A stretch of DNA of 37,861 nt from Candidatus Enterocola intestinipullorum (GTDB taxonomy: Bacteria > Bacteroidota > Bacteroidia > Bacteroidales > Paludibacteraceae). Within the stretch, counting starts at the first letter, position 1, and every line of letters begins with the position of its first letter. Of this stretch, positions 15,052-34,987 are shown one piece after another. The notes beneath the pieces were generated by a model, which saw nothing but the letters and a program-made list of their open reading frames with translations, was not told the DNA's origin and ran no database searches. Location: positions 1-37,861 of the forward strand of contig JADIMR010000054.1 in the NCBI GenBank assembly GCA_017694565.1, written 5' to 3'. The position numbers were made by a program, and so were the translations under genes.

Positions 15052-15873
15052 TCAACGCATTTGCTCAATATCAAAAGTGCCGTTTGCAAGTGCCGACCTT
15101 ATCTCGTTGTCCAAAACAGCCAATTCTTCTTCGTCGTAATCCACATTCCAAAATTCCTTTTGCGACAAACCTTTCTCATTCATCAGATACTCCGTCCGCA
15201 ACCTGCTCAAAAAATAAAAATAGGAGTTGCCCCAAATACCTTCGTCGGCAGTTAAATTATCGTGTTCTTCTGCGTTCTCAATGAAAATCTTTTTACCTTG
15301 CCCGACATGGAAAGAAGAAGACCCTGCAACATAATCGGCAAAACCCTCGCTTTTCCATTTGTTGAACCAATTATCGTACAGCCCCGTCAGCCATCCCCTG
15401 CTCTCGCGCTGCCAGAAATGGCACAATTCGTGCGCCCATACGCTTGCAGCAGGCCTGTCGATGAACCTAGCAGGTTGCTTCATCGTCTTGAAATCGGGGG
15501 GCATAAGCATGATAGTGGAAAAAGGCCAAAGCGAAACCCCAAGAGCCAACGAATTCAGATGCGCTGTACGTTTACGGAACGAATGGCGGTCCTTGACGAT
15601 GATGATGGTTACCTCATCTGTCAAATCGCAGCCTTTTGCCAACAACATGCTGTCGGCTTGCCCGAACGCCGCGACGACAGCCAACGAATCCATCCCCCTC
15701 ATATTCTTGTCCGCGTAAACCACTACGTTGCCCATATCGGCGACCTTTACCGTGTCGCGCAAAATCCACCACTTATAAAGCGAAACAAGCACTACCACAG
15801 TAAGCACAGTAGGCAGCACGTTATTTACTAAAATTGAAAGGGGTTTGTTCTTTATAGGAATGTTTAAGGACAT
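15052..15873 (-). CDS. Membrane-anchored putative gluzincin-type metalloprotease (HExxH...E)
   Basis: N-terminal TM, HELCH at 15418-15432, downstream KSEGFADYVAG. Confidence 0.6.
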   Translation of the reverse strand: MSLNIPIKNKPLSILVNNVLPTVLTVVVLVSLYKWWILRDTVKVADMGNVVVYADKNMRGMDSLAVVAAFGQADSMLLAKGCDLTDEVTIIIVKDRHSFRKRTAHLNSLALGVSLWPFSTIMLMPPDFKTMKQPARFIDRPAASVWAHELCHFWQRESRGWLTGLYDNWFNKWKSEGFADYVAGSSSFHVGQGKKIFIENAEEHDNLTADEGIWGNSYFYFLSRLRTEYLMNEKGLSQKEFWNVDYDEEELAVLDNEIRSALANGTFDIEQMR

Positions 15874-15927: not shown

Positions 15928-16119
15928 TCATTTGAAGATTGAAATACCGACCGCGTGTGCCACAAAAAAGCAGCAAACAAAAACAAACACGCACATTGCC
16001 GTGAAAATCATTTTGGGGTGCTGGGAGGCTTTAATTAACAACTCGCTTATTTCTTTAAAATCGTCATTCAAATTTTTCATGGGGGAATTATGTTTATTAT
16101 TGTCATCTAACTTTGTCAT
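15928..16119 (-). CDS. Small single-TM protein (likely start MTKLDDNNKH)
   Basis: C-terminal TM MIFTAMCVFVFVCCFFVAHAVGISIF; ORF-track start at 16191. Confidence 0.5.
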   Translation of the reverse strand: MTKLDDNNKHNSPMKNLNDDFKEISELLIKASQHPKMIFTAMCVFVFVCCFFVAHAVGISIFK

Positions 16120-16201
16120 ATTCTTCCATTTGACATATAAATAAAGGATAGTTCCGGGGAATACTTTCCTCCGAACTATCTTTAGAATCAATAGAGATTA
16201 A

Positions 16202-16426
16202 TTAATTCACAGGTCGTTTTCTATCATGCAAACGCAGATACAACACTACTAATGACAAGATTAATATAGGCAATGCAATTGTAATTCTTTCCATCACAAA
16301 GTTATAGATAGATCCTTTATAATGACAATAATTCCAAATTTCCACTCCTATAAACATCCCTACGACAAACAGCATTGCAAAGGACACTATGTTCAATGCT
16401 GTTTGTTTAGTATTCACTGATATCAT
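16202..16426 (-). CDS. Small two-TM membrane protein
   Basis: 74 aa; two hydrophobic segments and a basic tail RLHDRKRPVN. Confidence 0.55.
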   Translation of the reverse strand: MISVNTKQTALNIVSFAMLFVVGMFIGVEIWNYCHYKGSIYNFVMERITIALPILILSLVVLYLRLHDRKRPVN

Positions 16427-16579: not shown

Positions 16580-16900
16580 TCAAAGATTTTTTAAAAATAT
16601 TGCGGGATGCTCATTACAAACACACAAAACCGCTCCTCCACCAATTGCCATTAATTCGTCAGGCGCAATCTCCACTACCTTAAATGCGATTTCAACGAAA
16701 TGGGGGCTGTCGTAAACAAAAGAACGTTGATTTCTATCATATCTTATGGACGCTCCAGCATCTTTCAGTTCCTCAATAAGGTTGTAAACATGCTTCTTGG
16801 AAATCTTTAATTTTTGAGCAAATTCCTCTGAATTACCTGTGCTATGCAATCTGATCAATTGATCCATCCGTCGCACCCTTTCAATTTGTTCAATTAACAT
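16580..16900 (-). CDS. Small HTH protein with C-terminal double-glycine-leader-like motif
   Basis: EEFAQKLKISKKHVYNLIEELKDAGASIRYDR HTH; tail IAPDELMAIGGG-AVLCVCNEHPAIFLKNL. Confidence 0.8.
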   Translation of the reverse strand: MLIEQIERVRRMDQLIRLHSTGNSEEFAQKLKISKKHVYNLIEELKDAGASIRYDRNQRSFVYDSPHFVEIAFKVVEIAPDELMAIGGGAVLCVCNEHPAIFLKNL

Positions 16901-16950: not shown

Positions 16951-19104
16951 TCAAACTTGCTGGTTTTGCCAAAGCCGGAAAAATTCGCCTTTAGCGGCAA
17001 CCAGCTGCTCGAATTTGCCTTGTTCCTGCAATTTGCCTTCCGCCAAAACAAAAATCCGGTCGGCATTGCGAACAGTGCTCAACCTGTGTGCAATCACTAT
17101 TATTGTTTTTCCCTTTTTCCGTTGTTTTGCTATTGTTTCCTGTACATACCTTTCTGAAACAGAATCCAAGGAAGAAGTGGCTTCGTCCAAAATCAAGATT
17201 TCGGGATTTTTGTACAAAGCCCTTGCGATTGCAAGCCTCTGCCGTTGTCCACCTGAAAGCATAGACCCGTTTTCTCCGATATTGGCATTAAACCCTTCCG
17301 GAAGTTTTTCTATGAAATCCAAAAGCCCCAAATCCTTTGACAGCTCCACAACTCTTTGTATATCCGGTGTTTCATCTCCTATTGCAATATTTTGCAACAC
17401 CGTGCCTGAAAACAAATCAACCTGTTGAGGCACAGATGCCACCAATGACCTTAACGATGCATTGCTGACATATTGCAAATCCATTTCGCCGATAAAAATC
17501 TTTCCACCTGCAATAGGATATAAATTTTGCAACAAATGCGCAATGGTGGACTTGCCCGACCCGCTTTCGCCCACGATTGCCGAAAACTGTCCCTTTTTGA
17601 AAACTATGCTGAAATCATCAAACACTTGCGTTCTTGTACCATAACGGAACGACACGTGCGACATTTGCACGTCGCCGGCCATTTCCGGCTTGATGTCCAC
17701 CTTTTCTCCCTTTTCCTCTCTTTCCAAATCCATAATCTCAAACAATCTGTCCGCCGCGATAATCGCTGTGCGCACCGACTTGTTTGACTCCACCAATTCG
17801 GCAATAGGGCCGGTGAAATATCCTATCAGTGCATAAAACGACATAAGCTCGCCGGCGGTTATTTCGCCGTCCAAAACAAAATAGGATCCAGCCCATAAAA
17901 GGACTATCGTGAATATCCTGTTGATGACTTCGGACGACCTGCCGGAAAACACAGCGTTCATTGCTGAGCTGTATATGGAATACAGCATTTTGACAAAGCG
18001 GTTTTCCGTTTTAAGGTTGGAAAAATGTTCTATGCCGAATTGTTTTATTGTACGAACCCCATTTATTGATTCTACAAGCTGGCTTTCCAATGCCGCCGCG
18101 TCTTCCATCAACCTGCGCTCGGTCCTTTTGTTCCATTTGTCGGTAATGAGGTACAGACCAATATATAAAGGGATTACTATCAACATTATGAGAGCGAGTT
18201 TCCAATAATACGTGAACATCAATGCGAAAGAAAAGATTATGATGAACACGTTAACTACCAACCGTATGGCCGTGGAGTTGATGAAATTGCGGATTTGGAC
18301 TGCATCGCCTATGCGCGAAGTGATTTCGCCCGTTTGCATTGTATCAAAAAAGGTTTGCGGCAACAATAGCAAATGCTTGTAATAACCCAATATGAGCCTT
18401 GAATCTATCAATTGACCGCTGCGAAGCACCATTACCGACTGGCAACAACCGAGTATGAGCTGGAAAGCAAGTATCAGCAACATTGCCACACCCAAAAGAT
18501 TGAGCAGATTGGTATTTCCGCCAACCAACACGTTGTCGGTGATTTTCTCGATATATATCGAAGTGGACAAACCAAGCACCGTGTACAACAACGCGCCGAA
18601 TAGTGCCTGTGCCAACACATTGGAATTGGGACGCACCAAAGCCCAAAAACGCCGCCAGACAGAAACCGTGTTATCGACAGCTTCGAAACCATCATCGGGT
18701 TCCAATAATACCAGCACACCCGTCCATTCACCGCTGAATTTTTCTGCGGGTACGAATTCCATCGTTCCGTATGCAGGATCCATAATTTTGACTTGCCCCT
18801 TTCTATAACCATAAACAACAACGAAATGATGAAGCTCCATATCACCGTTTTTTCGGACAACATGGGCTATTGCCGGGGTAGGAATTTTATCCAACACTTC
18901 TTTTTGTGCTTTCACGCCCTTTGCCACAAATCCCATTTTTTCCGCAGCCTGAATCAATCCGAGGACGTTCGTTCCTTGTTTGTCAGTGCAGGCATACTGC
19001 CTTATGCGGGCGATGGGCATCCTCAGGCGGTAATGCGCGGCAACGGAAGCAAGGCATGCCGCCCCGCAATCCCGCATATCATGTTGTTTTACAGTTTCTT
19101 TCAT
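16951..19104 (-). CDS. Peptidase-containing ABC transporter (C39, PCAT)
   Basis: C39 catalytic residues QHDMRDCGAACL, HHFVVVYGY, IMDPAYG; Walker A GESGSGKST, signature LSGGQ, Walker B ILILDEATSSLD. Confidence 0.95.
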   Translation of the reverse strand: MKETVKQHDMRDCGAACLASVAAHYRLRMPIARIRQYACTDKQGTNVLGLIQAAEKMGFVAKGVKAQKEVLDKIPTPAIAHVVRKNGDMELHHFVVVYGYRKGQVKIMDPAYGTMEFVPAEKFSGEWTGVLVLLEPDDGFEAVDNTVSVWRRFWALVRPNSNVLAQALFGALLYTVLGLSTSIYIEKITDNVLVGGNTNLLNLLGVAMLLILAFQLILGCCQSVMVLRSGQLIDSRLILGYYKHLLLLPQTFFDTMQTGEITSRIGDAVQIRNFINSTAIRLVVNVFIIIFSFALMFTYYWKLALIMLIVIPLYIGLYLITDKWNKRTERRLMEDAAALESQLVESINGVRTIKQFGIEHFSNLKTENRFVKMLYSIYSSAMNAVFSGRSSEVINRIFTIVLLWAGSYFVLDGEITAGELMSFYALIGYFTGPIAELVESNKSVRTAIIAADRLFEIMDLEREEKGEKVDIKPEMAGDVQMSHVSFRYGTRTQVFDDFSIVFKKGQFSAIVGESGSGKSTIAHLLQNLYPIAGGKIFIGEMDLQYVSNASLRSLVASVPQQVDLFSGTVLQNIAIGDETPDIQRVVELSKDLGLLDFIEKLPEGFNANIGENGSMLSGGQRQRLAIARALYKNPEILILDEATSSLDSVSERYVQETIAKQRKKGKTIIVIAHRLSTVRNADRIFVLAEGKLQEQGKFEQLVAAKGEFFRLWQNQQV

Positions 19105-19114
19105 AAGGCAGGGT

Positions 19115-20251
19115 TCAACTTTTCATCAATTTTGGATTGAACCAATCGTCAATCTTGTCGAACAGCAGCTGCCACAAACTCCGTTCGGTTAGGGTAAAAC
19201 GCCCTGTGAGGGTCATGCCTTTACGGATTGGGGCGGCATAGCCGTTTTTTAGGCTCAAGCTATCGGAAAGCAGCTTGCAGCGGACAGTAAAATAAGAGGC
19301 ATTTTGTTCGATTGTGATGTTGTTGTCGATGTCCGAGACCTCGGCTTTGCCCAATCCCCATTGGTTGTAATCCAAAGCATCGAATTGCAAGCGGACAGGC
19401 TGCCCCACATGGACGTAGGCAATATCTGCCGGCAGTACGGTGCATTCAACCATCATTACATCATCTGGCGAAATCACTGCAACAGTCTCTCCGGGATAAA
19501 CGAAAGAATTTTCGGACAAACCTGAATACTCGGTAATAGTGCCGTCTATCGGGGATATAATGACATAATCCGCCATCTCTTTTTCCAAACGGGCAATGGA
19601 GCCTACCATGTTGGTCATTTCCTGCTCGGCCTCCTGACGGGCATTGTTCCACTCGAACAGTTTTTGCTGGCGCAAGATTTCAGTTTCCGCTTTTACCGAC
19701 TTGTATTCGGCAAGGCTTTGGTCGTAATCGTAAACCGTAACAACTCCCGCATCCGCCCCTTGCTTGTTGCGTCTAAGTTCCGAATGCAATATGCTATCCC
19801 GCAACGCAAGCTCTGCAAGCCGCTGCTCAAAATCAGCCAAATCGCTTTTGTACAAGAATGTCGACAAAGAATCCTTTATCCTTACTCCTGCACATAATTT
19901 TCTCAAATCGCCATGCCTTGCACTAAGTTCGGAAAGTAATCGTGTTTGCATTTCGAGCTGCGCGGAAAGCTGTCCCGATGAAACGACCAGCAATGTATCG
20001 CCGGCCTTAACAGCCTTATTTATAGACATTGTCACTTTTTCCACCCTGCCCTGCACTACCGGCTTTATTTGAACATCCTCTTCTACCGCACGGACTATAC
20101 CCCTGCTCTGGCTGCTCACTTCAACTTTGACCACAGGCAGCATGACAATCACGATTATCAACATAATGACAAACAGCCAATAAATCCACGGATGCTTGCT
20201 CTTATACTTTTGTTTCAGGTAATCGACCGTGTATTTATAATCTGCTGCCAT
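19115..20251 (-). CDS. HlyD-family periplasmic adaptor
   Basis: 378 aa; N-terminal TM, VKPVVQGRVEKVTMSINKAVKAGDTLLVV lipoyl-like, coiled coil, SPIDGTITEYSGL. Confidence 0.93.
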   Translation of the reverse strand: MAADYKYTVDYLKQKYKSKHPWIYWLFVIMLIIVIVMLPVVKVEVSSQSRGIVRAVEEDVQIKPVVQGRVEKVTMSINKAVKAGDTLLVVSSGQLSAQLEMQTRLLSELSARHGDLRKLCAGVRIKDSLSTFLYKSDLADFEQRLAELALRDSILHSELRRNKQGADAGVVTVYDYDQSLAEYKSVKAETEILRQQKLFEWNNARQEAEQEMTNMVGSIARLEKEMADYVIISPIDGTITEYSGLSENSFVYPGETVAVISPDDVMMVECTVLPADIAYVHVGQPVRLQFDALDYNQWGLGKAEVSDIDNNITIEQNASYFTVRCKLLSDSLSLKNGYAAPIRKGMTLTGRFTLTERSLWQLLFDKIDDWFNPKLMKS

Positions 20252-21542
20252 TTTCCGATAGTTTCAAATACGCATGGAGAACCTCGACCTTGTAAAGCCA
20301 TTCATATTTAGCTTTTATGGCTTGACGTTGTGCCGATGTGTGCTTTTGCCGGTAGATTTCCAACTCGTAGCTCGGCAAGAGCCCCAAAGAATATGAATGA
20401 GCCGCATAACGCACCTGCTCGCCACTCATGGCTTCGGTTTGCGCTGCCAAATCGTATAATTCGTAGGTATGCGACAAATCCAAGTGTATAACTTTCAAAT
20501 CATCATATATTTGCCTTTTCAGGCGATTCGCCTCATTTTCCGAAGCCGCACGTGAAAATTCATTCTTTTTGATATTGTTGCGTATTGCAAGTTGGGAAAA
20601 AATCGGAATGGATATGGATATATTTGCATTTTGGTGGAAATTTCCACCCCATTGGTCCGATGCCGGACGGTTGATCTGCCCTTGTAGGAATTGCGACGAC
20701 GTTCCGAGTTCGTAATTGAAGTAAATCGACGGATATAATTGGCGGCGACACGCTTTATTTTCCGTTTCAAGTGCCGAAATCTCTATCCGCTTTGCTTTCA
20801 GCGCAGGATGATTGTCGATAGTCACGGAATATATTTCTTCAAAACCGGGCAACATTGGCAAACTGTCGATGGATGATATTTCGATACTGTCGCTATCAAA
20901 TTGCATAATCTCAATCAAAGCGGCCTCTGCCTTTTCCACCTCGTATGCCTGCGCTGCCATATCTTGCTTATATTGCATAAGGTTGGTACGGGCATCGAGC
21001 AAATCTCGTTTGGAGGACTTTCCTATTTCATGCAACTTAGCCGTATTGCTTACCACGCTATCTTGGGAAACGTAATTGCTTTTTGCCACGTTGTAATTCT
21101 CCCTCGCCACAAGTAGCGTATAGTAACAACTTATTATTTCCAATTTGACAGAAAACTCTCGATTTGCCTTGTCTGCAAGGTTCTGCTGCCTGTCGAGCTC
21201 GCGTACCTTTACTAATGCCCGTTGTGCCTCGGCACTCCACAGTGGCAGCGACAGACTTATCGCGGCACTGTTGCTATAACTCTGCACACTTTGGTATATT
21301 CCGGCGGCATCTTCCGTAAACACTTGTTGATAACCTTGCGACAGTCCATTATTTATATTGGCAGACAGGGTCGGGCTGAACTTGTACTTTTGCGATTTCA
21401 CATCCAATTGTTTGTTGCAGTCTTCGATGTCGTATGCTTTCAAATCGTACCTGTTTTTCAAAGCGTAATCAATGCAGTCGGAAAGGGAATAAGAACGGGC
21501 AAAAACGATGAAACTGTTTGACCAAAAAAGGAAAAACAACAT
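20235..21542 (-). CDS. TolC-family outer membrane efflux protein (start probably MLFFLFWSNS)
   Basis: SYSLSDCIDYALKNRYDLKAYDIE and second OEP repeat; signal peptide only with the internal start; ORF-track start at 21632. Confidence 0.88.
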   Translation of the reverse strand: MLFFLFWSNSFIVFARSYSLSDCIDYALKNRYDLKAYDIEDCNKQLDVKSQKYKFSPTLSANINNGLSQGYQQVFTEDAAGIYQSVQSYSNSAAISLSLPLWSAEAQRALVKVRELDRQQNLADKANREFSVKLEIISCYYTLLVARENYNVAKSNYVSQDSVVSNTAKLHEIGKSSKRDLLDARTNLMQYKQDMAAQAYEVEKAEAALIEIMQFDSDSIEISSIDSLPMLPGFEEIYSVTIDNHPALKAKRIEISALETENKACRRQLYPSIYFNYELGTSSQFLQGQINRPASDQWGGNFHQNANISISIPIFSQLAIRNNIKKNEFSRAASENEANRLKRQIYDDLKVIHLDLSHTYELYDLAAQTEAMSGEQVRYAAHSYSLGLLPSYELEIYRQKHTSAQRQAIKAKYEWLYKVEVLHAYLKLSENGSRL

Positions 21543-21567
21543 ACAATATTTTTTCAAGGCAACAATC

Positions 21568-22635
21568 CTAAAATCTTCTTGAAATTCTAAAAATTTTTTG
21601 CAAAAATTTTCCATATGAAACTGCAAAACCAAAATTTCTACTCAAATATAATGCCAACCTACTTATTTTATAGTAATCTATATCATATTTGCTTCTTGCT
21701 TTTAATAGACTATCGGGAATACCCGTTCGTGAAATGTCAAAATGCCTGATAAAATCAGAACATGATATTTGATATAGGAAATTCTTAACCTCACGATCTT
21801 CTTTCTCCATCCTAATATAATCCGCATACGATTGAACAAACCCTGTGGAGATAAAGAACACTGCATACGCATTCTTATATTGATTAAAAACTTTCGCCTG
21901 TTTTAAAAATTCTCGGACAGAGATAATTGCTGAAAATCTACTTTCTATTGTTTTTCGAGTCCAAGTCTTAGTTATTGAACCCTTGCGCGTGAAATAATTA
22001 TATAGAGGCAACCCAACTACACTAAGCTTGTCTATGTGGTACAAGAGTTTTGAAGAATATATTATGTCCTCATAATATATACCACTTTCATCAAATCCTA
22101 TTTTACAATCTATCAATAGACTTCGCTTGACAAAATATTTCCATGGTTGAATAAATAACCCTGATTTTTGTAATAAAAACCGAACATATAAATCATCTTT
22201 TTCCAAATCAGTTAAATTTTGGTCGGGAATGAACTCAATACAACTCTGTACTTTCCGATGTTTCATCGCAATTTGACGATGCCCGTATAGTACCACATCG
22301 GAATTATCTGCCTTTGCTTGACTTAACAACGTTTCAACCGTGTTTTTTTCTATAGTATCATCGGAATCGACAAATAATATATATTCTCCCGTCGACTTAA
22401 CAATCGCGTCATTTCTACCAAATCCGTTGCCTTTATTAGTAGTATAATTTATAAGACTTATCCTATTGTCCCTATTTATGTAATCTTGAATTATTTCGAG
22501 CGTAGAATCTGTAGAGGCATCATTTATGATCACGACTTCCAAATTATCATATGACTGATTAAGCACGGAATCTAAGCATTGCCCTATATACTTTTCAACA
22601 TTATACGCCGGGATTATCACAGTTACGACCTCCAT
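21568..22635 (-). CDS. Glycosyltransferase family 2
   Basis: MEVVTVIIPAYNVEKYIGQCLDSVLNQSYDNLEVVIINDASTDST and FVDSDD; ORF-track start at 22653. Confidence 0.92.
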   Translation of the reverse strand: MEVVTVIIPAYNVEKYIGQCLDSVLNQSYDNLEVVIINDASTDSTLEIIQDYINRDNRISLINYTTNKGNGFGRNDAIVKSTGEYILFVDSDDTIEKNTVETLLSQAKADNSDVVLYGHRQIAMKHRKVQSCIEFIPDQNLTDLEKDDLYVRFLLQKSGLFIQPWKYFVKRSLLIDCKIGFDESGIYYEDIIYSSKLLYHIDKLSVVGLPLYNYFTRKGSITKTWTRKTIESRFSAIISVREFLKQAKVFNQYKNAYAVFFISTGFVQSYADYIRMEKEDREVKNFLYQISCSDFIRHFDISRTGIPDSLLKARSKYDIDYYKISRLALYLSRNFGFAVSYGKFLQKIFRISRRF

Positions 22636-22800
22636 AATTATTACCCTAGTCATTAAATTGATTTACAATTCTTTGTATGAGTTATAGTTATTACATTACT
22701 ATAACTCACATCATATAATAATCGCTTCACACCCCATACAAAACCCTTACTTATTTATTAAATAAAACATCCATATTATACAATATCTGATTTCGGGCAG

Positions 22801-23072: not shown

Positions 23073-23240
23073 ATGAAGAAAACAAATTTTAATTTGTCCG
23101 ATTATGAACAACTATCTTTGGATGAAATGAAAAACACAAATGGGGGGATTATAGGCCCCGAATGGGTTATAATCGGGACCGCATTTGGAATCGCACTAGT
23201 TGCCGGTCTAGTAGGAGGTTTTTTTCTTGGAGGTTATTAA
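23073..23240 (+). CDS. Double-glycine leader precursor peptide 1 (55 aa)
   Basis: MKKTNFNLSDYEQLSLDEMKNTNGG|IIGPEWVIIGTAFGIALVAGLVGGFFLGGY; L-12, E-8, M-7, G-2, G-1; absent from the ORF track (<60 aa). Confidence 0.85.
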   Translation: MKKTNFNLSDYEQLSLDEMKNTNGGIIGPEWVIIGTAFGIALVAGLVGGFFLGGY

Positions 23241-23259
23241 AAGTATTTAGTTTCTAATT

Positions 23260-23427
23260 ATGGACACAAGTAAATTAGGATTGTCGGAATTGACAATTTC
23301 AGAACAAAAAGAGTATTGTGGAGGACTTTCATTTAATCTGCTTGATCGCGTTTTGGCAGCCATTGCCCTTGGTTGGGATATCGGCTGGACATTGGGATCC
23401 GGATTACGAAAAACTTTCTTTTATTAA
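23260..23427 (+). CDS. Double-glycine leader precursor peptide 2 (55 aa)
   Basis: MDTSKLGLSELTISEQKEYCGG|LSFNLLDRVLAAIALGWDIGWTLGSGLRKTFFY; L-12, E-8, G-2, G-1. Confidence 0.85.
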   Translation: MDTSKLGLSELTISEQKEYCGGLSFNLLDRVLAAIALGWDIGWTLGSGLRKTFFY

Positions 23428-23443: not shown

Positions 23444-23605
23444 ATGGAACTAATCAATAGCGAAAAAACCAACAAGCCCGCCACAAACAAGAAGCGCAAA
23501 CCCAACTGGGAAAAATGCTCGCTCTCGATAATTCTTGCTGCTTTATTAGGGTGGATGATTGGTTGGGACTTGGGTTCCGGAATTACCCATTTGAACTTGT
23601 TTTAG
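23444..23605 (+). CDS. Leaderless small membrane peptide related to precursor 2 (53 aa)
   Basis: MELINSEKTNKPATNKKRKPNWEKCSLSIILAALLGWMIGWDLGSGITHLNLF; shares LGWxIGWxLGSG with precursor 2. Confidence 0.75.
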   Translation: MELINSEKTNKPATNKKRKPNWEKCSLSIILAALLGWMIGWDLGSGITHLNLF

Positions 23606-23629: not shown

Positions 23630-23667
23630 AAAAATGGTCTGGTTTAATATTAAACCAGACCATTTTT
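23630..23667 (+). terminator. Perfectly palindromic terminator of the precursor operon
   Basis: AAAAATGGTCTGGTTTAATATTAAACCAGACCATTTTT is a perfect 38-nt palindrome ending in T5. Confidence 0.85.
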
Positions 23668-23755: not shown

Positions 23756-24191
23756 TCAATTAGAGATTTCTTTCTCCGATGCCCTGTCTGTTGGGTTCAT
23801 TTTAAAAGAGAACACGGGTCGCCAGTTATTCAAAAAAAGCACAAACAAAACCGCAGCAAATACACTTCCATATCCGACAACTCGCAAAGTAATTGCATAT
23901 TCCTGCATTAGTACATGACATTCCGAAAATAAGTACTGCAACAACACAGATCCGGCATTTGCACAAATATGAATCAATACCACATTTCCCAAGTTTCCAG
24001 TCCTATAAAACAACCACGACATGAACAAACTCAAAAGCAACGCATTTGCGAATGTAAAAAACTTCTCTAAAACAGGAGCAGGAGAAAGAATATCGTAATG
24101 CAATATTGCAAACAACAACGAAACTCCCACTAAGCTATCACATATCTCCACCAATTGTGTTTATACCTATATGCTTGGCTCAGAATTCCAT
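23756..24191 (-). pseudogene. CPBP-type protease remnant/chimera
   Basis: 24154-23756 encodes FAILH and HICAN CPBP motifs but lacks EExxxR; 24191 downward reads ATGGAATTCTGAGCCAAGCATATAGGTATAAACACAATTGGTGGAGATAT, matching the start of the intact CPBP gene at 25710. Confidence 0.7.
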
Positions 24192-24306
24192 ATCTTGTTA
24201 TTATTTGATAATTCACACTCCCATAACAGAAAAAAACTATTGCACGAAAAATGGCAAAAAAAGTAACGAGCATGTCTTTATATACTATACTCTGCCCTCT
24301 ACCATT

Positions 24307-24759: not shown

Positions 24760-25710
24760 TTACTCCTCCACTGCCACCACAGGCCTTTCAATCTTCCGGA
24801 ACAACCTACGCCAATCCCAATGGTAGAGTTTTGTGGCAATCAATAGGAACAATGCCATTACTGCAAACGAAATCAATAATGATTCCCACGACAGGATAGA
24901 AGGTTCCGAGGAAGAAAACAATGCCGGCATACGTATGTCGCTGTTTGGAAATGTAATTATGCACGTGCACAGCACGTTGTTAATGAAATGCACGCCCCAA
25001 GCCATTTCCAAACCGTCGTCCAAGACCGTGCATAACGCCAATGCTAACCCCATAAGGAAATATTCCGCCAACGCCCATGTCCCGCTGTCGGCAACCGCGA
25101 CGTTCATGCAGTGCAAGCCGGTAAAAAGCAGAGTCGGGACAATCAATACCACCCACTTTTGGCTGGTAATCAAAGCAATGCCTTGCGCGAGATAGCTTCT
25201 GCAAAGAACTTCTTCGTACAACGTTTGAATTGGAAAAAGCAGCAGCATCAGCACCAAGCCTAAGAAAAAGTCATTGGCGTTGAAAGAAAATGTTACCGCG
25301 CCGGGGTCGGAGAAGATGATTCCGATTGCCAATACCGCTGCCAAAATAAATCCGTACACCGCAACCCCGTAAAAGAATCTGTCATAACGGAACTTAGTTG
25401 CGGCAGTAAGCAAATCCTTGATTTTTCCTTTGTGCAGTATCTTGTAAAACAAGATAAAGAAGAACAGCATGAAAACAAATGGCAACATAAGACACAGCGA
25501 AAAACCCAAGGCAAAACCCATATTTTCCATAAGGGCATAGGTGCGCTCTACCATGCCCATTGATTGCATTTCAGGAGTGGCAAATCGTAAACCAATGACA
25601 TTACCTATGATGCCTGCGCACAATTGTGCTAAAAGTACGGACAAAACTATTGTCAATAAATATCTCCACCAATCGTGCTTATATTTATGCGCTTGTGCTA
25701 AGAATTCCAT
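24760..25710 (-). CDS. CPBP (CAAX/bacteriocin-processing type) intramembrane metalloprotease
   Basis: YEEVLCRSYL (EExxxR), LFTGLHCMN (FxxxH), HFINN (HxxxN), multiple TMs. Confidence 0.9.
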   Translation of the reverse strand: MEFLAQAHKYKHDWWRYLLTIVLSVLLAQLCAGIIGNVIGLRFATPEMQSMGMVERTYALMENMGFALGFSLCLMLPFVFMLFFFILFYKILHKGKIKDLLTAATKFRYDRFFYGVAVYGFILAAVLAIGIIFSDPGAVTFSFNANDFFLGLVLMLLLFPIQTLYEEVLCRSYLAQGIALITSQKWVVLIVPTLLFTGLHCMNVAVADSGTWALAEYFLMGLALALCTVLDDGLEMAWGVHFINNVLCTCIITFPNSDIRMPALFSSSEPSILSWESLLISFAVMALFLLIATKLYHWDWRRLFRKIERPVVAVEE

Positions 25711-25729
25711 ACCAAACTGATTTTTCGGT

Positions 25730-28421: not shown

Positions 28422-31400
28422 CTACTTTACCATGAATTTCAATGCCTTGCCAGAAACTACAAGCAAATATGTGCCTTGTTGCAGTCCTGCCACATCCAAG
28501 ACCGACCCGTCTGCAACGGAACTTAGTACGACTCGTCCCGACAAATCCACTACCTTTATTGTTTCTCCGGCCTCCACGTTTTCGACATAAACGTAATCGT
28601 CAGCAGGATTCGGCCATAAATAGATTCCGGAACCCGTATCGTCAAGATCGACAGATGTGGGCAGATCTTCTTCGCCCGTATCTCCCGGTATGCGCGATTT
28701 GGCGTAATAAATGTTGTCCAAGGAAAGATAATTGCCTGTTGAGATCGTATTTTCGCCTACTATGCCGAACGCCAACCAATTGTCCATAGTGCCAAGTTGC
28801 AACCCGGCAGAAACGAACTCCGACATAGGGATATAGGTGGAATGCCACTGCAAGTCGGGCGTATGGTCGAAACCTACGGCAAACTCGCCATTGGTTCCGC
28901 TGATCTTTACTTGCAACTGCCCGCTGTAATCGGTCTTGTACGAGAAATACAGATTATAATCGGCTATTTGTGAAAGTCCTACTTCTATGCTTCCGGTATT
29001 ATATCCGCCGCCGAACCACGAACCGGTAGAAGCAGAAATAGTGAATGCTATCGCATCGCTGCCCTCTGCCGCATCTTGGACAGTGGTGCCGACAAGCGTG
29101 TTTTCCCACACATATAACGGGCATGCCCTCAGATCCAATACTTCGCCGTCAGGCAATTCGTCGCGGCAAACCACCCAGTAATCGTATGTTCCGGACGGAG
29201 TTTCTTCTTCGTCTTCGCCGCCCTGACTGTCATCGCCACTATCGGAAACGCCCCATACGAACGTTGCCGCAGACCCTGCGGGAATCTCGTACGAAAAACT
29301 CTGCCCGTCTATGGTTATGGTAGTGGTATGGGTGTAGTCGGTGTTCTCGTTATGGCAAATTACCACATAGCTGCCATCTGTATTTTTGAACGCAGTTGCA
29401 GGCAACGATGTCGAAGAGCAGCCTAACCTTACCGCACCGGGTTTAACGAATTTGGAGGCCTGCGCGATTATATAGTAAGCCACATTTTTTGTGTATGACG
29501 TGGAATTTTCCACTGTTATGGCACCGAGGCAAGTATCGCAACCGCCTTCTGTATGCGGTCCCATGCTGCTGTTGTTAGCCAAATTCCATTCCAATATCGT
29601 CTTCGCCCAATTGTTGGACCCGCCTATTACCACATTGCGCAAATGCCATGAGAAATCGCCCTGGAAGTCTCCGCCTGCCCCTGTATATTGTTCCGTAAAA
29701 TAAACGCCCTTGCCCGTGCGGTTGTACACGTCTGTCATGGCTGAAATATCTCCCGCGTACAAGTGAAACGCCGTGCCGTCCACGTAAGAGCTTTGGCTGA
29801 CGTAAATCGGGAATTCGGTATTGTCGCAATTATGGTCGTAGCATATAATTTTGACATTGCCGAACCCGGCAGACTCCAATTGCGGACCAAGATAATTGTT
29901 CACAAAGGTGTACTGGTCTTCTTTGGTCATGCCCATGCTCGGATTGTTGGTCGTGTTCAAAGGCTCGTTCTGCGGGGTAACGGCCCAAATGTCTATGCCG
30001 TATGCCTGCATCGCCTGCAAGTATTTTACAAAATACAGGGCGTATGCCGAATAGTAGTCGTTGTTTAGATAGTTGTTGTCGAACTTCATCCATTCTGGTG
30101 CGCTCCAAGGCGTGGCCATTACTTTTATGTCGGGGTTTATGGCCAATGCTTTCAACAAAACAGGTATCGTATATTGCATGTCGGGGCCTTCGAGGCTGAA
30201 CTCGGACATGTCGGTATCGCCGTCGTTGTCGTTGTAAGAGTAAACCGAAGAACTAAGGTCGGTCGCGCCTATGCCCAACCTTATAACCGAAACTCCTATG
30301 CCCGTTTCGGGATTGAACAAATCATAGAGCAACTCTTCCTGTTTATCGGAGGTAAGCGACATTATTACCTCGGCGCTACCTTCTGTCAGGGTAAATCCGA
30401 ACCCGTCAATTTCCTGATACGTTTCCGAGCTATTTACCGTTATGGTAGAGGTAGTCGAATACGTTTCACCGAATTGCAATCCGTCCATTTCCGCCAACAA
30501 CCGGCTACGGTCGCCGGAAGTTACGATTACGCGCACGTCCCCGTCTGCGGGATTTTCAGGTATGTCCGGAGCCGGATCAGGATCTTCCTCTTTTTCATCT
30601 TCAAAGAAATCGGTAACCAATTTCCATTGCTGGGTGGCACTGCCGTTGTTGTCCCAAGTTTTCAACCATTCGCCAAGGTCGGTTTTGCTTTCGGGAACCT
30701 CGACCACCTTGCCGCAATGCCTTGCCGCCAATTGATAATACCCGTCTGGTGCGGCAATCAATATGAATTGCTGGTGGGAATAACCCAAGTAATCATACAA
30801 TTGCACCAAAGCACGGTTATCCGTTGAATTGTCGGCAATATCGAAACTTTTGCCGCTGTTTTTATTAGTAATGCTGTACACTCCGTTACCGACTTCGGCA
30901 AACTCGAACAACTGGGACGGGTCGTCTCCCTCCGAAACATATTGCACGACCGGCGCGTTATTATCCGTGGAATTGTTTTCCACGTCCATATACAGGCCGC
31001 TATTGCGGTTTTTCAATTTGTACACCCCGCTTTTGCCTGAAACTCCCGAAGCTTCGACACGGATAGAACTTGTCTTGTCGTTGAATGAAGGGAAATGGTT
31101 CGTATCGCCCGTGTAACTTACGTTTTCTCCATCGAAATTGTCCCCGTCGTAAAGGATTACCCTATAACCGGGCGTTACTTTCAAGGAACTGATTTGGTCC
31201 GCACCGATTCCGTAAAGAGCAAGGTCCGTTGCATTGTAGCTGCCTTCCGGCAAACCAAGGGAAGACCCTTTGTAATCGGCATCTTTATATACGGTAGCCA
31301 CGGCATAGCCTTGCGGCTTGTAATCGACCAACTTCCATTGCTGGGTGGCACTGCCGTTGTTGTCGTACAGTTTGCACCATTCTCCCCACTCCAAGCTTGA

Positions 31401-32882
31401 CGACGGAACTTCGACGACTTTTCCGCAATGCGATGCCGCAAGATAATAATACCCGTCCGCCGCATCCAACAATATGAATTGCTGGTTCGCAGCCGAATAA
31501 TCATCGTATTGCTGGACAACCGCGCCGTTATCCGTCGAATTGTCCATTATATCCAAAACCTTTCCGCTACGGTAATTCTTTATACTGTAAATGCCTTCCC
31601 CCACCTCGGCAAGCTGCCAGAATTGCGACGGGTCGCCCTGTTCATCGGCAAAAACCACCACGTTCGCGTTGTTTTCCGTTGAATTATTGTTAACGTCCAT
31701 ATACAGACCGCTATTGCGGTTTTGCAACTTGTATAATCCGCCTTTGCCTGAAACGCCGGCAGTGGAAACCTTAATGGAAGTACAACGGTCGTTGAAATCG
31801 TCCCCTACATAAGAAGCATCGGAAGTATATGTCCGGGATTCCCCGCCGAAGCCGGAATTGTCATACAATGTTACCTTATAGCCGGACGGCACTTTGAGGG
31901 ATGAAATATCGTCATTAATAATGCCGTAAGCGGCCAAGGCTGCCATGTCGTGTTCTCCCAACGGCAACCCCACTGCATATCCTCCGTAATTCATGTCGCT
32001 GCAAACAGTTACCACGCTGTTCTGCGCTGTCTGGTACGAGCCGAAAATCCTGTTCATGCGTGTCGCCCAATCATTCAAATCCCATGTCTCGTCGTTGTAA
32101 ACCCACACGAAACCGCCCGACACCCCGCAATTGTCTTTCCATGACTGCATTTGGGAAATGGACTCTTCCATTGAAGATTGGTAATTGGTCCTGCCGGCAT
32201 ACAGCGGCAAGCCGTTTATGTGCCAATCGCAAGGGTTATTCCCCGCACCGCCGTCGTAGCATTGCACCATTACGCGGTCGCAGGCACCCGGCCTCTCGCT
32301 GTTTATCCGGGTTGCCAGATTTTCCCAATAAGACCTGTTCATATATGGAGCAAGGGAGGTCTTATAGCCCAAATCGCTCATCATTATATGGAAACTTGCC
32401 GCAGAAGCAACATCATAGCAATGTTCGTCATCGTTGTTGACACCGTCTATTACCGGAAGGGCTTCCTTCAATGCCTTGAAATTACGGTAAAGGATGCTGC
32501 CGCTGCCTGTTCCCTGCGAATTTACAAGGGACTGTATGCGCGAATACGATTCGTTGCCCCACCCGCCGATGCAAATATCTATCCTGCGGATATTGGTCGG
32601 CCATTGTTTCAAGGATGTTATATCCGAAACATACTCCGGTTGCGTATTGCCGAATACGTACACGCCGTCCTTGCAAACCGTTTCGCCGTCGCAAGTCAGA
32701 GTTCCGTCACTTTCCACATTGATATTGAACAATATGACATACGAAAATCCCGACTTTTTAAGTTTTTCGATAGTGGACGGCCTTTCGCGGCGTATATGCC
32801 CTCCGACATATACCCCCGATTCCGCAAAAAGCATTGCCGGAATACATAAAAGCCACACAAACAAAAAGCTGATTCTTTTCAT
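28422..32882 (-). CDS. Secreted multidomain glycoside hydrolase: GH18-like + 2x(beta/gamma-crystallin + ricin-type lectin) + GH30 + C-terminal module + T9SS type A sorting domain
   Basis: VIDGVNNDDEH (GH18-like DxxDxDxE); repeats VYKDADYKGSSLGLPEG...YKLKNRNSGLYMDVENNSTD...QQFIL; GH30 VTPQNEP and ILEWNLANN; C-terminal GIYLWPNPADDYVYVENVE...GRVVLSS...GTYLLVVSGKALKFMVK. Confidence 0.88.
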   Translation of the reverse strand: MKRISFLFVWLLCIPAMLFAESGVYVGGHIRRERPSTIEKLKKSGFSYVILFNINVESDGTLTCDGETVCKDGVYVFGNTQPEYVSDITSLKQWPTNIRRIDICIGGWGNESYSRIQSLVNSQGTGSGSILYRNFKALKEALPVIDGVNNDDEHCYDVASAASFHIMMSDLGYKTSLAPYMNRSYWENLATRINSERPGACDRVMVQCYDGGAGNNPCDWHINGLPLYAGRTNYQSSMEESISQMQSWKDNCGVSGGFVWVYNDETWDLNDWATRMNRIFGSYQTAQNSVVTVCSDMNYGGYAVGLPLGEHDMAALAAYGIINDDISSLKVPSGYKVTLYDNSGFGGESRTYTSDASYVGDDFNDRCTSIKVSTAGVSGKGGLYKLQNRNSGLYMDVNNNSTENNANVVVFADEQGDPSQFWQLAEVGEGIYSIKNYRSGKVLDIMDNSTDNGAVVQQYDDYSAANQQFILLDAADGYYYLAASHCGKVVEVPSSSLEWGEWCKLYDNNGSATQQWKLVDYKPQGYAVATVYKDADYKGSSLGLPEGSYNATDLALYGIGADQISSLKVTPGYRVILYDGDNFDGENVSYTGDTNHFPSFNDKTSSIRVEASGVSGKSGVYKLKNRNSGLYMDVENNSTDNNAPVVQYVSEGDDPSQLFEFAEVGNGVYSITNKNSGKSFDIADNSTDNRALVQLYDYLGYSHQQFILIAAPDGYYQLAARHCGKVVEVPESKTDLGEWLKTWDNNGSATQQWKLVTDFFEDEKEEDPDPAPDIPENPADGDVRVIVTSGDRSRLLAEMDGLQFGETYSTTSTITVNSSETYQEIDGFGFTLTEGSAEVIMSLTSDKQEELLYDLFNPETGIGVSVIRLGIGATDLSSSVYSYNDNDGDTDMSEFSLEGPDMQYTIPVLLKALAINPDIKVMATPWSAPEWMKFDNNYLNNDYYSAYALYFVKYLQAMQAYGIDIWAVTPQNEPLNTTNNPSMGMTKEDQYTFVNNYLGPQLESAGFGNVKIICYDHNCDNTEFPIYVSQSSYVDGTAFHLYAGDISAMTDVYNRTGKGVYFTEQYTGAGGDFQGDFSWHLRNVVIGGSNNWAKTILEWNLANNSSMGPHTEGGCDTCLGAITVENSTSYTKNVAYYIIAQASKFVKPGAVRLGCSSTSLPATAFKNTDGSYVVICHNENTDYTHTTTITIDGQSFSYEIPAGSAATFVWGVSDSGDDSQGGEDEEETPSGTYDYWVVCRDELPDGEVLDLRACPLYVWENTLVGTTVQDAAEGSDAIAFTISASTGSWFGGGYNTGSIEVGLSQIADYNLYFSYKTDYSGQLQVKISGTNGEFAVGFDHTPDLQWHSTYIPMSEFVSAGLQLGTMDNWLAFGIVGENTISTGNYLSLDNIYYAKSRIPGDTGEEDLPTSVDLDDTGSGIYLWPNPADDYVYVENVEAGETIKVVDLSGRVVLSSVADGSVLDVAGLQQGTYLLVVSGKALKFMVK
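30612..32015 (-). repeat. Two tandem beta/gamma-crystallin + ricin modules within the GH18/GH30 protein (approximate limits)
   Basis: About 230-aa modules with the same order of motifs (DxNYGG/DADYKG; RNSGLYMDV; GSATQQWKLV). Confidence 0.8.
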
Positions 32883-34987
32883 GGTATCTGGATATTGGTT
32901 TCATTCGGTACTTCTGCACAAATTTCGGGTTCGGGACCGTTTTGGTATACTGTAACGGAGCTTTGGCAATTATTGTTGGGAACTTTCATGGTCGCAGTAA
33001 TAGTAGCGGACCCTATGCAGGTGAATTTCGCATCCAACCGGGTTTCGGTTTCCTTCGCTATCAAGTATCCGTCGTCTTCACAGTATAAACCTGTACCTGA
33101 CGAAGAAATGCTCCATTCCACCGGAACATCGGATGTGAAACTGCGCGATTGCAACACGGTAAGGTGAACTTCGGCAGACGGATTGACAATAAGCTGCGGA
33201 CGACTTGTCGTTTCGATGACAATATCGCCTTTCATCGTTGTTGCCACCGATTTGCATTCTTCGTAACTTGCATCGTATGCTTTAACGGTATATGTCCCGG
33301 CCTTGGAAACTCTCCACGCCTGCCTTTCCCCTGTCCCTGCAACTATGTCTCCATAGGCATTCCCATCCTTAAGCAAGCAATAATTCATTCCCTTCTGCGT
33401 ATTCGATGTAATTTCAGCATACCCGCCATTGTCGCAAATCTTGCCTCCTCCCGACAATTCGTATGAAACGACATGCTCGCATTCGCGCTGGATTTTCCAT
33501 TGTTGGGTATAAGTCCCGTTATTGTCGTATGTACGAAGCCATTCGCCGGCAACAGTACTACTTGCGGGAACCTCGACCACGTCTCCGCTATGACGAGCAA
33601 TCAATTGAAAATATCCATCTTCTGTCTCTATCACAATAAACTGCTGATGCGCATAACCCAAATATTCGTATTGCTGTACGACCGCTCCGTTGTCTATGGA
33701 ATTATCCGTAATATCCAATGATTTCCCGCTGTTGGTATTTGTTATCCTGTACACGCCGTGTTCTCCTTGCAGTTCTTCGAAACCAAACAACTGCGTGGCG
33801 TTCAGATATTCATTCCGGTATTGTATCAGTGCAGCCTTGTTTTCTTTTGAATTCCTATCGACATCCATATATAAGCCGCTATTGCGGTTTTGCAGTTTAT
33901 AATCCCCGTCGAAACCTTGAACTCCCCACGCCTCCACCTTTATCGACTGGACTCTGTCATTCCAACCGACCGGCATGGATTGAATGTCTTCCGCAATATA
34001 GCTGATACTGTTTCCTTGCTGCCCGTCATCTGAATAAAGCGTAACCTTATAACCTTTGGAAACTTTAAAAGAACTTATTTGATTGGTTCCTATCCCGAAA
34101 AGTTTGAGCCACTCGGATGCATATTCACCCTCCAACAAATCCAAATCAAAACCTTGATAATCGGCATCCTTGTAAACAGTTACAGGCTGCACGTAAGAGA
34201 GTATTTTCCATTGCTGGTTACTTCCTCCGTCCTTATCGGCAATCTTCAACCATTCTCCCGGATCGCTACTGCCTTCGCCTTCGGGATTGGAATCAGGAGG
34301 CGGCATTTCTATTACTTTTCCGCAATGGCGGGCAATCAGATAACAATATCCGTTTTCCTCCTTTATTATTATGAATTGTTGCCAAAAGTTGCCATTATAA
34401 TCATATTGCTGCACTGCCGAGCCGCTTTTCGTGTTACCATCAACAATATCCATGACCTTGCCGCTTCGGTAATTCCTTATGATGTAAACACCGCTGTCGG
34501 GGGATACTTCTTCAACCTGCCAGAATTGCGAATGTTCATTTCCTTCATTATAATATTGTACCACTTTGTAATTGTTCTCTGTCGAATTATTGTCCACATC
34601 CGCATATAAACCGCTGCTGCCGTTTTGTATTTTATACACTCCCGTCAAGCCAGTTGATCCCTTGGGATAAATCTTAACGGAAGAAATGTCATCATTCCAC
34701 TCATCGCCGACATTGTCTGTATCAGAAGTAAAAATCCTGACTTTTCCCGTGAACTCAGGCCCTGAATATGCTTCTACGGCAAAACCGTAACAAACCTTTA
34801 ATGATGATATGGCATTATCTGCCATGCCTGTGGTTGCAATATTCGGATATTTGCCTTCCGGCAAGGCTACCATATTCCCGCCATAATCAATATCTTGATA
34901 AAACATGGCTACCTCGGCCGCATAAGCGGCAAACACAGGGAAAGAAAGGGTTATGAACAAAATTTGAATTTTTCCGACAAACTTCAT
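32879..34987 (-). CDS. Secreted lectin-like protein: 2x(beta/gamma-crystallin + ricin) + Ig-like C-terminus, no recognisable catalytic domain
   Basis: Signal peptide; same modules as the downstream hydrolase; stop overlaps the downstream ATG (4 nt). Confidence 0.82.
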   Translation of the reverse strand: MKFVGKIQILFITLSFPVFAAYAAEVAMFYQDIDYGGNMVALPEGKYPNIATTGMADNAISSLKVCYGFAVEAYSGPEFTGKVRIFTSDTDNVGDEWNDDISSVKIYPKGSTGLTGVYKIQNGSSGLYADVDNNSTENNYKVVQYYNEGNEHSQFWQVEEVSPDSGVYIIRNYRSGKVMDIVDGNTKSGSAVQQYDYNGNFWQQFIIIKEENGYCYLIARHCGKVIEMPPPDSNPEGEGSSDPGEWLKIADKDGGSNQQWKILSYVQPVTVYKDADYQGFDLDLLEGEYASEWLKLFGIGTNQISSFKVSKGYKVTLYSDDGQQGNSISYIAEDIQSMPVGWNDRVQSIKVEAWGVQGFDGDYKLQNRNSGLYMDVDRNSKENKAALIQYRNEYLNATQLFGFEELQGEHGVYRITNTNSGKSLDITDNSIDNGAVVQQYEYLGYAHQQFIVIETEDGYFQLIARHSGDVVEVPASSTVAGEWLRTYDNNGTYTQQWKIQRECEHVVSYELSGGGKICDNGGYAEITSNTQKGMNYCLLKDGNAYGDIVAGTGERQAWRVSKAGTYTVKAYDASYEECKSVATTMKGDIVIETTSRPQLIVNPSAEVHLTVLQSRSFTSDVPVEWSISSSGTGLYCEDDGYLIAKETETRLDAKFTCIGSATITATMKVPNNNCQSSVTVYQNGPEPEICAEVPNETNIQIP
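33480..34910 (-). repeat. Two further beta/gamma-crystallin + ricin modules (approximate limits)
   Basis: Paralogous to 30612-32015 by motif order. Confidence 0.75.

What the first reader, a model, noticed from the sequence alone, without database searches (positions are those of the whole stretch)
23073..23427. Two unannotated double-glycine precursor peptides (bacteriocin-like) divergent from a PCAT secretion operon
Two consecutive 55-aa ORFs have canonical GG leaders (LSLDEMKNTNGG and LTISEQKEYCGG: L at -12, E at -8, GG at -2/-1). The cores are hydrophobic and glycine-rich: IIGPEWVIIGTAFGIALVAGLVGGFFLGGY, with many GxxxG-like spacings, and LSFNLLDRVLAAIALGWDIGWTLGSGLRKTFFY. They sit after a TTTA-N19-TACCTTTG promoter, opposite GT2-TolC-HlyD-PCAT. 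Core composition and pairing resemble two-peptide (class IIb) bacteriocins, but neither core looks like the pediocin-like bacteroidetocins. The ORF track misses them because of its 60-aa cutoff.
Basis: partly seen in the sequence, partly recalled or inferred. Interest (0 to 1): 0.88.

Follow-up and report, generated by a model that had tools for sequence, protein, structure and literature searches.

The report
Bacterial peptide-toxin locus with self-tagged regulator
A gut-type Bacteroidia genome fragment carries two genuine exported-peptide genes, probably a two-part antibacterial toxin, next to their export machine; it also carries an overlooked third gene that may protect the producer and a small DNA-binding regulator that bears the same cutting-and-export tag as the toxins.

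Summary
Both ORFs are real at the stated coordinates, and their double-glycine (GG) leaders are far beyond chance. A leader profile built only from relatives scores them 22.3 and 17.4 bits; the next window ORF scores 3.5, and none of 16,204 random ORFs reaches 17.4. They are the only convincing GG peptides in the assembly. PCAT relatives (55-65%) in the family mostly have GG-peptide genes beside them, and tandem pairs like this one recur (15 pairs in 11 loci). The cores have no detectable relatives, so antibacterial action is inferred.

(1) A third gene, ORF3 (23444-23605), completes the operon before a strong terminator. It has no leader but shares ORF2's GWxIGWxLGSG membrane motif, and its size and position match the one-helix immunity protein CbnZ. 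A CAAX-protease (Abi) homologue nearby occurs, among 16 genus genomes, only in two PCAT-bearing ones. (2) The gene after the transporter (16580-16900) is a winged-HTH regulator ending in a GG export motif. This architecture recurs across Bacteroidia beside PCAT genes (15/19 with the motif versus 6/30 without, P=6e-5). I found no description of it.

Class IIb membership is not established: the cores are not cationic and TIGR03949 is below cut-off.

The parts
23073..23240 (+). ORF1, GG precursor 1: leader MKKTNFNLSDYEQLSLDEMKNTNGG, core IIGPEWVIIGTAFGIALVAGLVGGFFLGGY (30 aa, very hydrophobic, net charge -1)
23260..23427 (+). ORF2, GG precursor 2: leader MDTSKLGLSELTISEQKEYCGG, core LSFNLLDRVLAAIALGWDIGWTLGSGLRKTFFY (33 aa, net +1, GxxxGxxxG)
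23444..23605 (+). ORF3, 53 aa, no GG leader, Lys/Arg-rich N-terminus, one membrane segment with GWMIGWDLGSG shared with ORF2; candidate immunity peptide
   Evidence: 60% over about 20 aa, E=0.005; 11 of 18 aligned residues identical, 6 of those by synonymous codons
23018..23025 (+). TACCTTTG, possible -7 element of the ORF1-3 operon
   Evidence: not rarer than chance on its own
23630..23667 (.). perfect 38-nt palindrome directly after ORF3; folds as a 17-bp hairpin ending in a U run (-23.3 kcal/mol, z=-9.1): terminator of the three-gene operon
21568..22653 (-). GT2 glycosyltransferase, first gene of the divergent set; role in the system unknown, not conserved in related PCAT loci
20235..21632 (-). 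TolC-family outer-membrane factor (start codon uncertain, more likely ATG at 21542)
19115..20251 (-). HlyD-family periplasmic adaptor
16951..19104 (-). PCAT: C39 peptidase + ABC transporter; Cys/His/Asp triad, Walker and LSGGQ motifs intact
   Evidence: end to end with PCAT1 4ry2, E=9e-160
16580..16900 (-). HTH-GG protein, 106 aa: winged HTH (about 1-65), then IAPDELMAIGGG double-glycine motif and a 17-aa tail; starts 50 bp after PCAT
16202..16426 (-). small predicted two-segment membrane protein (74 aa), unknown
15928..16191 (-). small predicted one-segment membrane protein (start uncertain), unknown
15052..15873 (-). membrane-anchored HExxH (HELCH ... SEGFADY) metalloprotease-like protein; paralogues sit between the GG-peptide genes in L026, a fragment in L027
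24760..25710 (-). CPBP/Abi (Rce1-like, PF02517) membrane protein with EEVLCR and HFINN motifs; second immunity candidate
24136..24192 (-). relic of a second copy of the CPBP gene start (52 bp, 85% identical)

Best explanation
This is a class II (unmodified) peptide-bacteriocin locus of a Bacteroidia bacterium. ORF1 and ORF2 are GG-leader precursors; the C39 domain of the divergently encoded PCAT cuts after GG and exports the 30- and 33-residue cores through HlyD and TolC (inferred from anatomy; leaders and machinery are shown). The two hydrophobic, weakly charged cores probably act as a pair that inserts into membranes of related bacteria (inferred). ORF3, co-transcribed and apparently derived from the same ancestor as ORF2's membrane segment but without a leader, stays in the producer's inner membrane and gives self-protection, probably by pairing with the incoming peptide in place of its partner (inferred); the nearby CPBP protein or the HExxH protein may add immunity. 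The HTH-GG protein at the end of the export genes is the regulator, and its GG tail makes it a likely ligand or substrate of the PCAT, tying expression to export (inferred).
For: Leader scores far above chance with a profile trained only on other genomes; only convincing GG peptides in the assembly, and within the genus only this genome and G010 have such leaders, both PCAT+; intact PCAT/HlyD/TolC; related PCAT loci mostly carry GG peptides; tandem dissimilar GG pairs recur (15 in 11 loci); three-gene operon closed by a terminator; ORF2/ORF3 motif kept despite codon divergence; known two-peptide immunity proteins of 42-55 aa, with CbnZ having one membrane helix directly downstream of cbnXY (PMC6957408), and Abi/CPBP immunity (PMC6957408, PMC10059821); CPBP in only 2 of 16 genus genomes, both PCAT+, in G010 directly after the GG peptide in the PCAT operon.
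Against: No relative of either core was found, so nothing shows antibacterial activity. Cores are not cationic. GxxxG in core 1 is explained by composition. GG peptides can also be pheromones. ORF3's role rests on position and resemblance only; no relative locus examined shows a leaderless paralogue. The CPBP gene lies in a separate opposite-strand gene set with its own ABC transporter.
Confidence: 0.5

Rival explanations
1. One or both cores are signalling peptides (ComC/BlpC-like pheromones), exported by the PCAT and used to sense density, possibly through the HTH-GG regulator.
For: GG leaders and PCATs also serve cell-to-cell communication (PMC7018657 abstract). A regulator sits in the locus.
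Against: Cores are long, membrane-like and unlike known pheromones; no histidine kinase/response regulator seen among the predicted genes flanking the peptides; immunity-like genes are present.
Confidence: 0.2
2. ORF1 and ORF2 are two independent single-peptide bacteriocins, and ORF3 is a third peptide or decaying duplicate rather than an immunity gene.
For: Many related loci carry several GG peptides that need not be pairs; ORF3's N-terminus is unlike any GG leader (-4.7 bits), as expected of decay as well as of new function.
Against: The frame of ORF3 is intact, its motif is kept through synonymous codons (6 synonymous, 5 identical, 7 nonsynonymous of 18) and its N-terminus is Lys/Arg-rich, which fits a retained membrane protein.
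Confidence: 0.2
3. The peptides are modified natural products: the GT2 protein in the export operon glycosylates them (as SunS does sublancin, from memory) before export.
For: GT2 is the first gene of the export operon and overlaps the TolC frame.
Against: It matches polysaccharide-type glycosyltransferases (PRK10073 113.9 bits, below cut-off), is absent from the related PCAT loci examined, and the cores have no Cys and few Ser/Thr.
Confidence: 0.07
4. The PCAT serves something else and the peptides are unexpressed remnants.
For: No core conservation.
Against: Intact leaders, frames, operon spacing and terminator.
Confidence: 0.06

Closest known systems
Two-peptide (class IIb) bacteriocins, e.g. 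carnobacteriocin XY with immunity protein CbnZ
   Same: Two adjacent dissimilar GG precursors, hydrophobic cores with GxxxG in core 2, a tiny one-helix protein directly downstream, Abi/CPBP protein nearby
   Different: Gram-negative host with TolC/HlyD; cores not cationic; ORF3 resembles one of the peptides; synergy untested; family model below cut-off
Bacteroidetocins (Coyne et al. 2019, PMC6671954)
   Same: Bacteroidota GG peptides exported by a PCAT
   Different: Bacteroidetocins have 42-aa cores with four cysteines, a thiol oxidoreductase and a 5-TM protein in the operon, and no immunity protein; none of these is found here
Class II microcins (colicin V type)
   Same: GG leader, C39-ABC exporter, HlyD-type adaptor, TolC-type channel, small membrane immunity protein
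   Different: Here two peptides, shorter cores, own TolC gene, HTH-GG regulator
HTH_11 winged-HTH domain proteins (N-terminal domain of NiaR/BirA)
   Same: Predicted fold of residues 1-65 of the HTH-GG protein
   Different: No ligand or enzyme domain; instead a flexible tail with a PCAT-type GG motif
FlgM, an anti-sigma factor exported by the flagellar secretion system
   Same: Works like it, if the HTH-GG tail is recognised by the PCAT: a regulator whose state reports export capacity
   Different: Different protein family and secretion system; a functional analogy from memory only

Membership tests
GG-leader peptides of PCAT systems | Short leader with hydrophobic -12, acidic -8, GG at -2/-1 | tested here: met
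   22.3 and 17.4 bits against an independent profile, 0 of 16,204 random ORFs
GG-leader peptides of PCAT systems | C39-ABC transporter encoded in cis with intact catalytic residues | tested here: met
   PF03412 115 bits; aligns end to end with PCAT1 including C, H and D
GG-leader peptides of PCAT systems | Cleavage after GG and export | not testable with these tools
   needs biochemistry
Class IIb two-peptide bacteriocins | Two different adjacent precursor genes | tested here: met
   19-nt gap; tandem GG pairs in 10 other loci
Class IIb two-peptide bacteriocins | GxxxG-like motifs in both cores | tested here: inconclusive
   core 1 P=0.20, core 2 P=0.03 against shuffles of composition
Class IIb two-peptide bacteriocins | Cationic amphiphilic cores | tested here: not met
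   net charge -1 and +1
Class IIb two-peptide bacteriocins | Passes NCBIfam TIGR03949 (lactobin A/cerein 7B) | tested here: not met
   ORF1 17.1 bits, cut-off 21.5; ORF2 no hit; the model also passes other GG peptides
Class IIb two-peptide bacteriocins | Dedicated membrane immunity protein | tested here: inconclusive
   candidates ORF3 and CPBP by anatomy and co-occurrence; function untested
Class IIb two-peptide bacteriocins | Both peptides needed for activity | not testable with these tools
   needs assay
Bacteroidetocins | Four cysteines in a ~42-aa core; thiol oxidoreductase in operon | tested here: not met
   no Cys in either core; no such gene identified
TIGR04149 GG RiPP precursors of Bacteroidales | Match above cut-off | tested here: not met
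   no hit in own genome (control genomes silent too), none for ORF1-3 at E<=10
Abi/CPBP immunity family (24760-25710) | PF02517 with EExxxR and HxxxN motifs | tested here: met
   43.8 bits against cut-off 22.4; EEVLCR, HFINN
HTH_11 (HTH-GG protein) | PF08279 above cut-off | tested here: inconclusive
   window protein 22.5 bits (cut-off 25); relative L062 31.1 bits

The most novel reading that the evidence does not exclude
The HTH-GG protein is a transcription regulator that is itself a substrate of the peptide exporter: its C-terminal GG motif is bound or cut by the C39 domain, so the DNA-binding 'leader' is released or changed when the exporter is free, coupling bacteriocin expression to export capacity (and perhaps exporting the tail as a signal). 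The architecture is widespread in Bacteroidia PCAT loci and I found no description of it.
Probability: 0.35. Interest if true: 0.78.

Novelty: new variant of a known kind. Interest (0 to 1): 0.56.

Why it matters
Few small bacteriocins of Bacteroidales are known and, as far as the papers read here show, none is described as a two-peptide system; this locus gives a complete, testable cassette (two precursors, candidate immunity peptide, exporter). A leaderless paralogue of a toxin acting as immunity would be a simple evolutionary route to self-protection. More widely, a DNA-binding protein tagged with the exporter's own cutting motif, recurring beside PCAT genes across many Bacteroidia families, would be a new way to couple transcription to secretion and makes the unknown regulation of these loci directly testable.

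Tried and rejected
Core homologues: single-sequence searches in the genus (16 genomes, both ORFs), the family (358 genomes, ORF2), IMG/VR (ORF2) and plasmids found none; weak family hits lay mostly in long frames and were not pursued. The GWxIGWxLGSG pattern gave 9 hits in 85,000 genomes, none in a small GG or leaderless ORF that looks coding, and none in IMG/VR. TIGR03949 as evidence for class IIb was rejected because it also passes unrelated GG peptides such as L026 13143-13334 and L035 12147-12419. The promoter claim is kept only as possible. Operator-like repeats between the divergent operons: only AT-rich repeats. PADLOC and Rfam added nothing for these genes. The metalloprotease model matched collagenase and M1 peptidases only weakly (best E=1e-3, TM 0.45), so it is called metalloprotease-like from HExxH and this fold hint. 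A leaderless ORF3-like paralogue was looked for in related loci by eye and none was evident.

Full report
OBSERVATION. ORF1 (23073-23240) and ORF2 (23260-23427) read exactly as reported. To test the leaders without circularity I built a 15-column profile from 22 GG leaders found beside related PCAT genes in other genomes and scored every ATG ORF of 30-130 aa in the window: ORF1 22.3 and ORF2 17.4 bits, next best 3.5; the best of 16,204 ORFs in randomised windows is 15.8. A leader-profile search of 16 genomes of the genus gives these two as the only convincing hits in the own genome (E 2e-9, 2e-6; this profile includes them among 20 rows), plus one in G010 (1e-8); the rest have E of 0.03 or worse, nearly all inside long frames. 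The window is a whole contig of a 1.8 Mb assembly, 84% complete.

THE OPERON. A third frame follows ORF2 after 16 nt: ORF3 (23444-23605), 53 aa. It has no GG leader (-4.7 bits), a Lys/Arg-rich N-terminus, and a membrane segment LAALLGWMIGWDLGSG like ORF2's LAAIALGWDIGWTLGSG; over 18 aligned codons 5 are identical, 6 synonymous and 7 nonsynonymous. A perfect 38-nt palindrome after ORF3 (23630-23667) folds at -23.3 kcal/mol (z -9.1) and closes a three-gene unit. The promoter motif is present but not significant.

EXPORT. On the other strand lie GT2, TolC, HlyD and PCAT. The PCAT aligns end to end with PCAT1 (4ry2), including the C39 Cys, His and Asp. Homologues at 55-65% identity occur in 12 other genomes of 300 sampled from the family. 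Of the 12 neighbourhoods, nine carry GG-leader small ORFs with dissimilar cores; in L028, L029 and L034, all short contigs, none was seen. Dissimilar tandem GG pairs recur: 15 pairs with gaps of at most 60 bp in 11 loci, across several families (a few L025, L035 and L119 entries are parts of longer arrays or duplicates). So a pair is a normal form for such loci, though the pairing function is unproven.

WHAT IT PROBABLY DOES. Very hydrophobic cores, membrane-type partner genes and PCAT export fit a bacteriocin better than a pheromone. ORF3 matches the known minimal immunity proteins of two-peptide bacteriocins: CbnZ is 42 aa with one membrane helix directly downstream of cbnXY; BrcI, EnkIaz and AbpIM have 53, 52 and 55 aa (PMC6957408). 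A CPBP/Abi protein, another known immunity type, is encoded at 24760-25710. In the genus it is found only in this genome and in G010, both PCAT-positive (PCAT in 3 of 16), and in G010 it directly follows the GG peptide. A relic of a second CPBP start lies at 24136-24192. In L026, HExxH proteins related to window 15052-15873 are interleaved with the GG-peptide genes, and in L035 another 290-aa membrane-anchored family does the same, which looks like peptide-plus-partner cassettes. What is shown: genes, leaders, exporter, operon, associations. What is inferred: cleavage, killing, pairing, immunity.

CLASS IIb? Two adjacent precursors: met. Cationic cores: not met (-1, +1). GxxxG: core 1 not above composition. 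TIGR03949: below cut-off, and the model is leader-driven. I therefore say it works like a two-peptide bacteriocin but do not file it in class IIb. It is not a bacteroidetocin (no Cys in the cores).

THE HTH-GG PROTEIN. Fifty bp after the PCAT lies a 106-aa protein (16580-16900): a winged HTH (HTH_11-like; pLDDT about 95 over residues 10-60, flexible tail) followed by IAPDELMAIGGG, a canonical GG motif, and a 17-aa tail. The same architecture occurs in family members L031, L032, L035, L062, L063, L065 and, split by a frameshift, L030. A class-wide search found the HTH family in 35 of 395 genomes; of 30 proteins extracted, 9 carry GG and at least two more AG (L089, L093) after position 58. Of 18 listed motifs, 15 have D/E at -8 and 16 have I/V at -4, though for individual sequences the upstream match to peptide leaders is modest (shuffle P 0.008-0.39). 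The motif goes with a C39 gene within 10 kb: 15 of 19 proteins with the motif against 6 of 30 without (Fisher P=6e-5; class-level set alone 10 of 11 vs 2 of 15, P=1e-4). Caveats: one 'GG' case (L155) is a false call, L030 and L064 on the other side are broken GG forms, some contigs are short, and relatives are not independent; four of the GG cases (window, L031, L032, L035) were found through their PCAT, so the class-level set is the cleaner test. Literature searches found no description, but the library is open-access only.

HOW HTH-GG MIGHT WORK. The DNA-binding domain occupies the place of an extended leader. The PCAT may hold or cut it when not busy with peptides, so the free HTH level would report export capacity; alternatively the tail is exported as a signal. 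In genus g18 (large genomes, probably Bacteroides or a neighbour; names are not shown) the tail is conserved (PS..xDGxNLxLYxYxA), while in other genera it differs. This is inference; the association is the result.

VERDICT. The finding is real and its export reading is sound; the class IIb label is an analogy. ORF3 and above all HTH-GG make the locus more interesting than first reported.

Noticed in passing
window 16580-16900 (-); L031, L032, L035, L062, L063, L065, L118-L128: Winged-HTH proteins with a C-terminal double-glycine motif, linked to PCAT genes across Bacteroidia (15/19 vs 6/30 without motif).
   Followed up: yes
window 24136-24192 (-): Relic of a second copy of the start of the CPBP gene (52 bp, 85% identical to 25660-25711).
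   Followed up: partly
L026 10260-14900; window 15052-15873: HExxH membrane-anchored proteins interleaved with GG-peptide genes; one copy (L026 11463-12317) has lost the HExxH motif. Possible immunity or processing protease.
   Followed up: partly
L035 11188-18045: Another family of about 290-aa membrane-anchored proteins, in one to several copies after each GG-peptide gene.
   Followed up: no
L027 8502-10385: A DUF6734 protein with a C-terminal C39-like peptidase domain (31.8 bits) inside a PCAT operon in which no TolC gene was seen.
   Followed up: no
L030 8050-8253, L031 near 9612, L063 near 5429, L021/L033 near 146-287: Copies of the HTH-GG tail (DGxNLxLYxYxA) detached from the HTH, once joined to the HlyD N-terminus; suggests cassette shuffling by recombination.
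   Followed up: no
window 11644-12870 (-): AAA ATPase-like protein with a very strong match to PADLOC candidate PDC-S01 (525 bits).
   Followed up: no
window 28422-34987 (-): Two large adjacent secreted proteins with repeated crystallin-like and ricin-lectin-like segments, one with a glycosidase-like region (by eye only); not examined.
   Followed up: no
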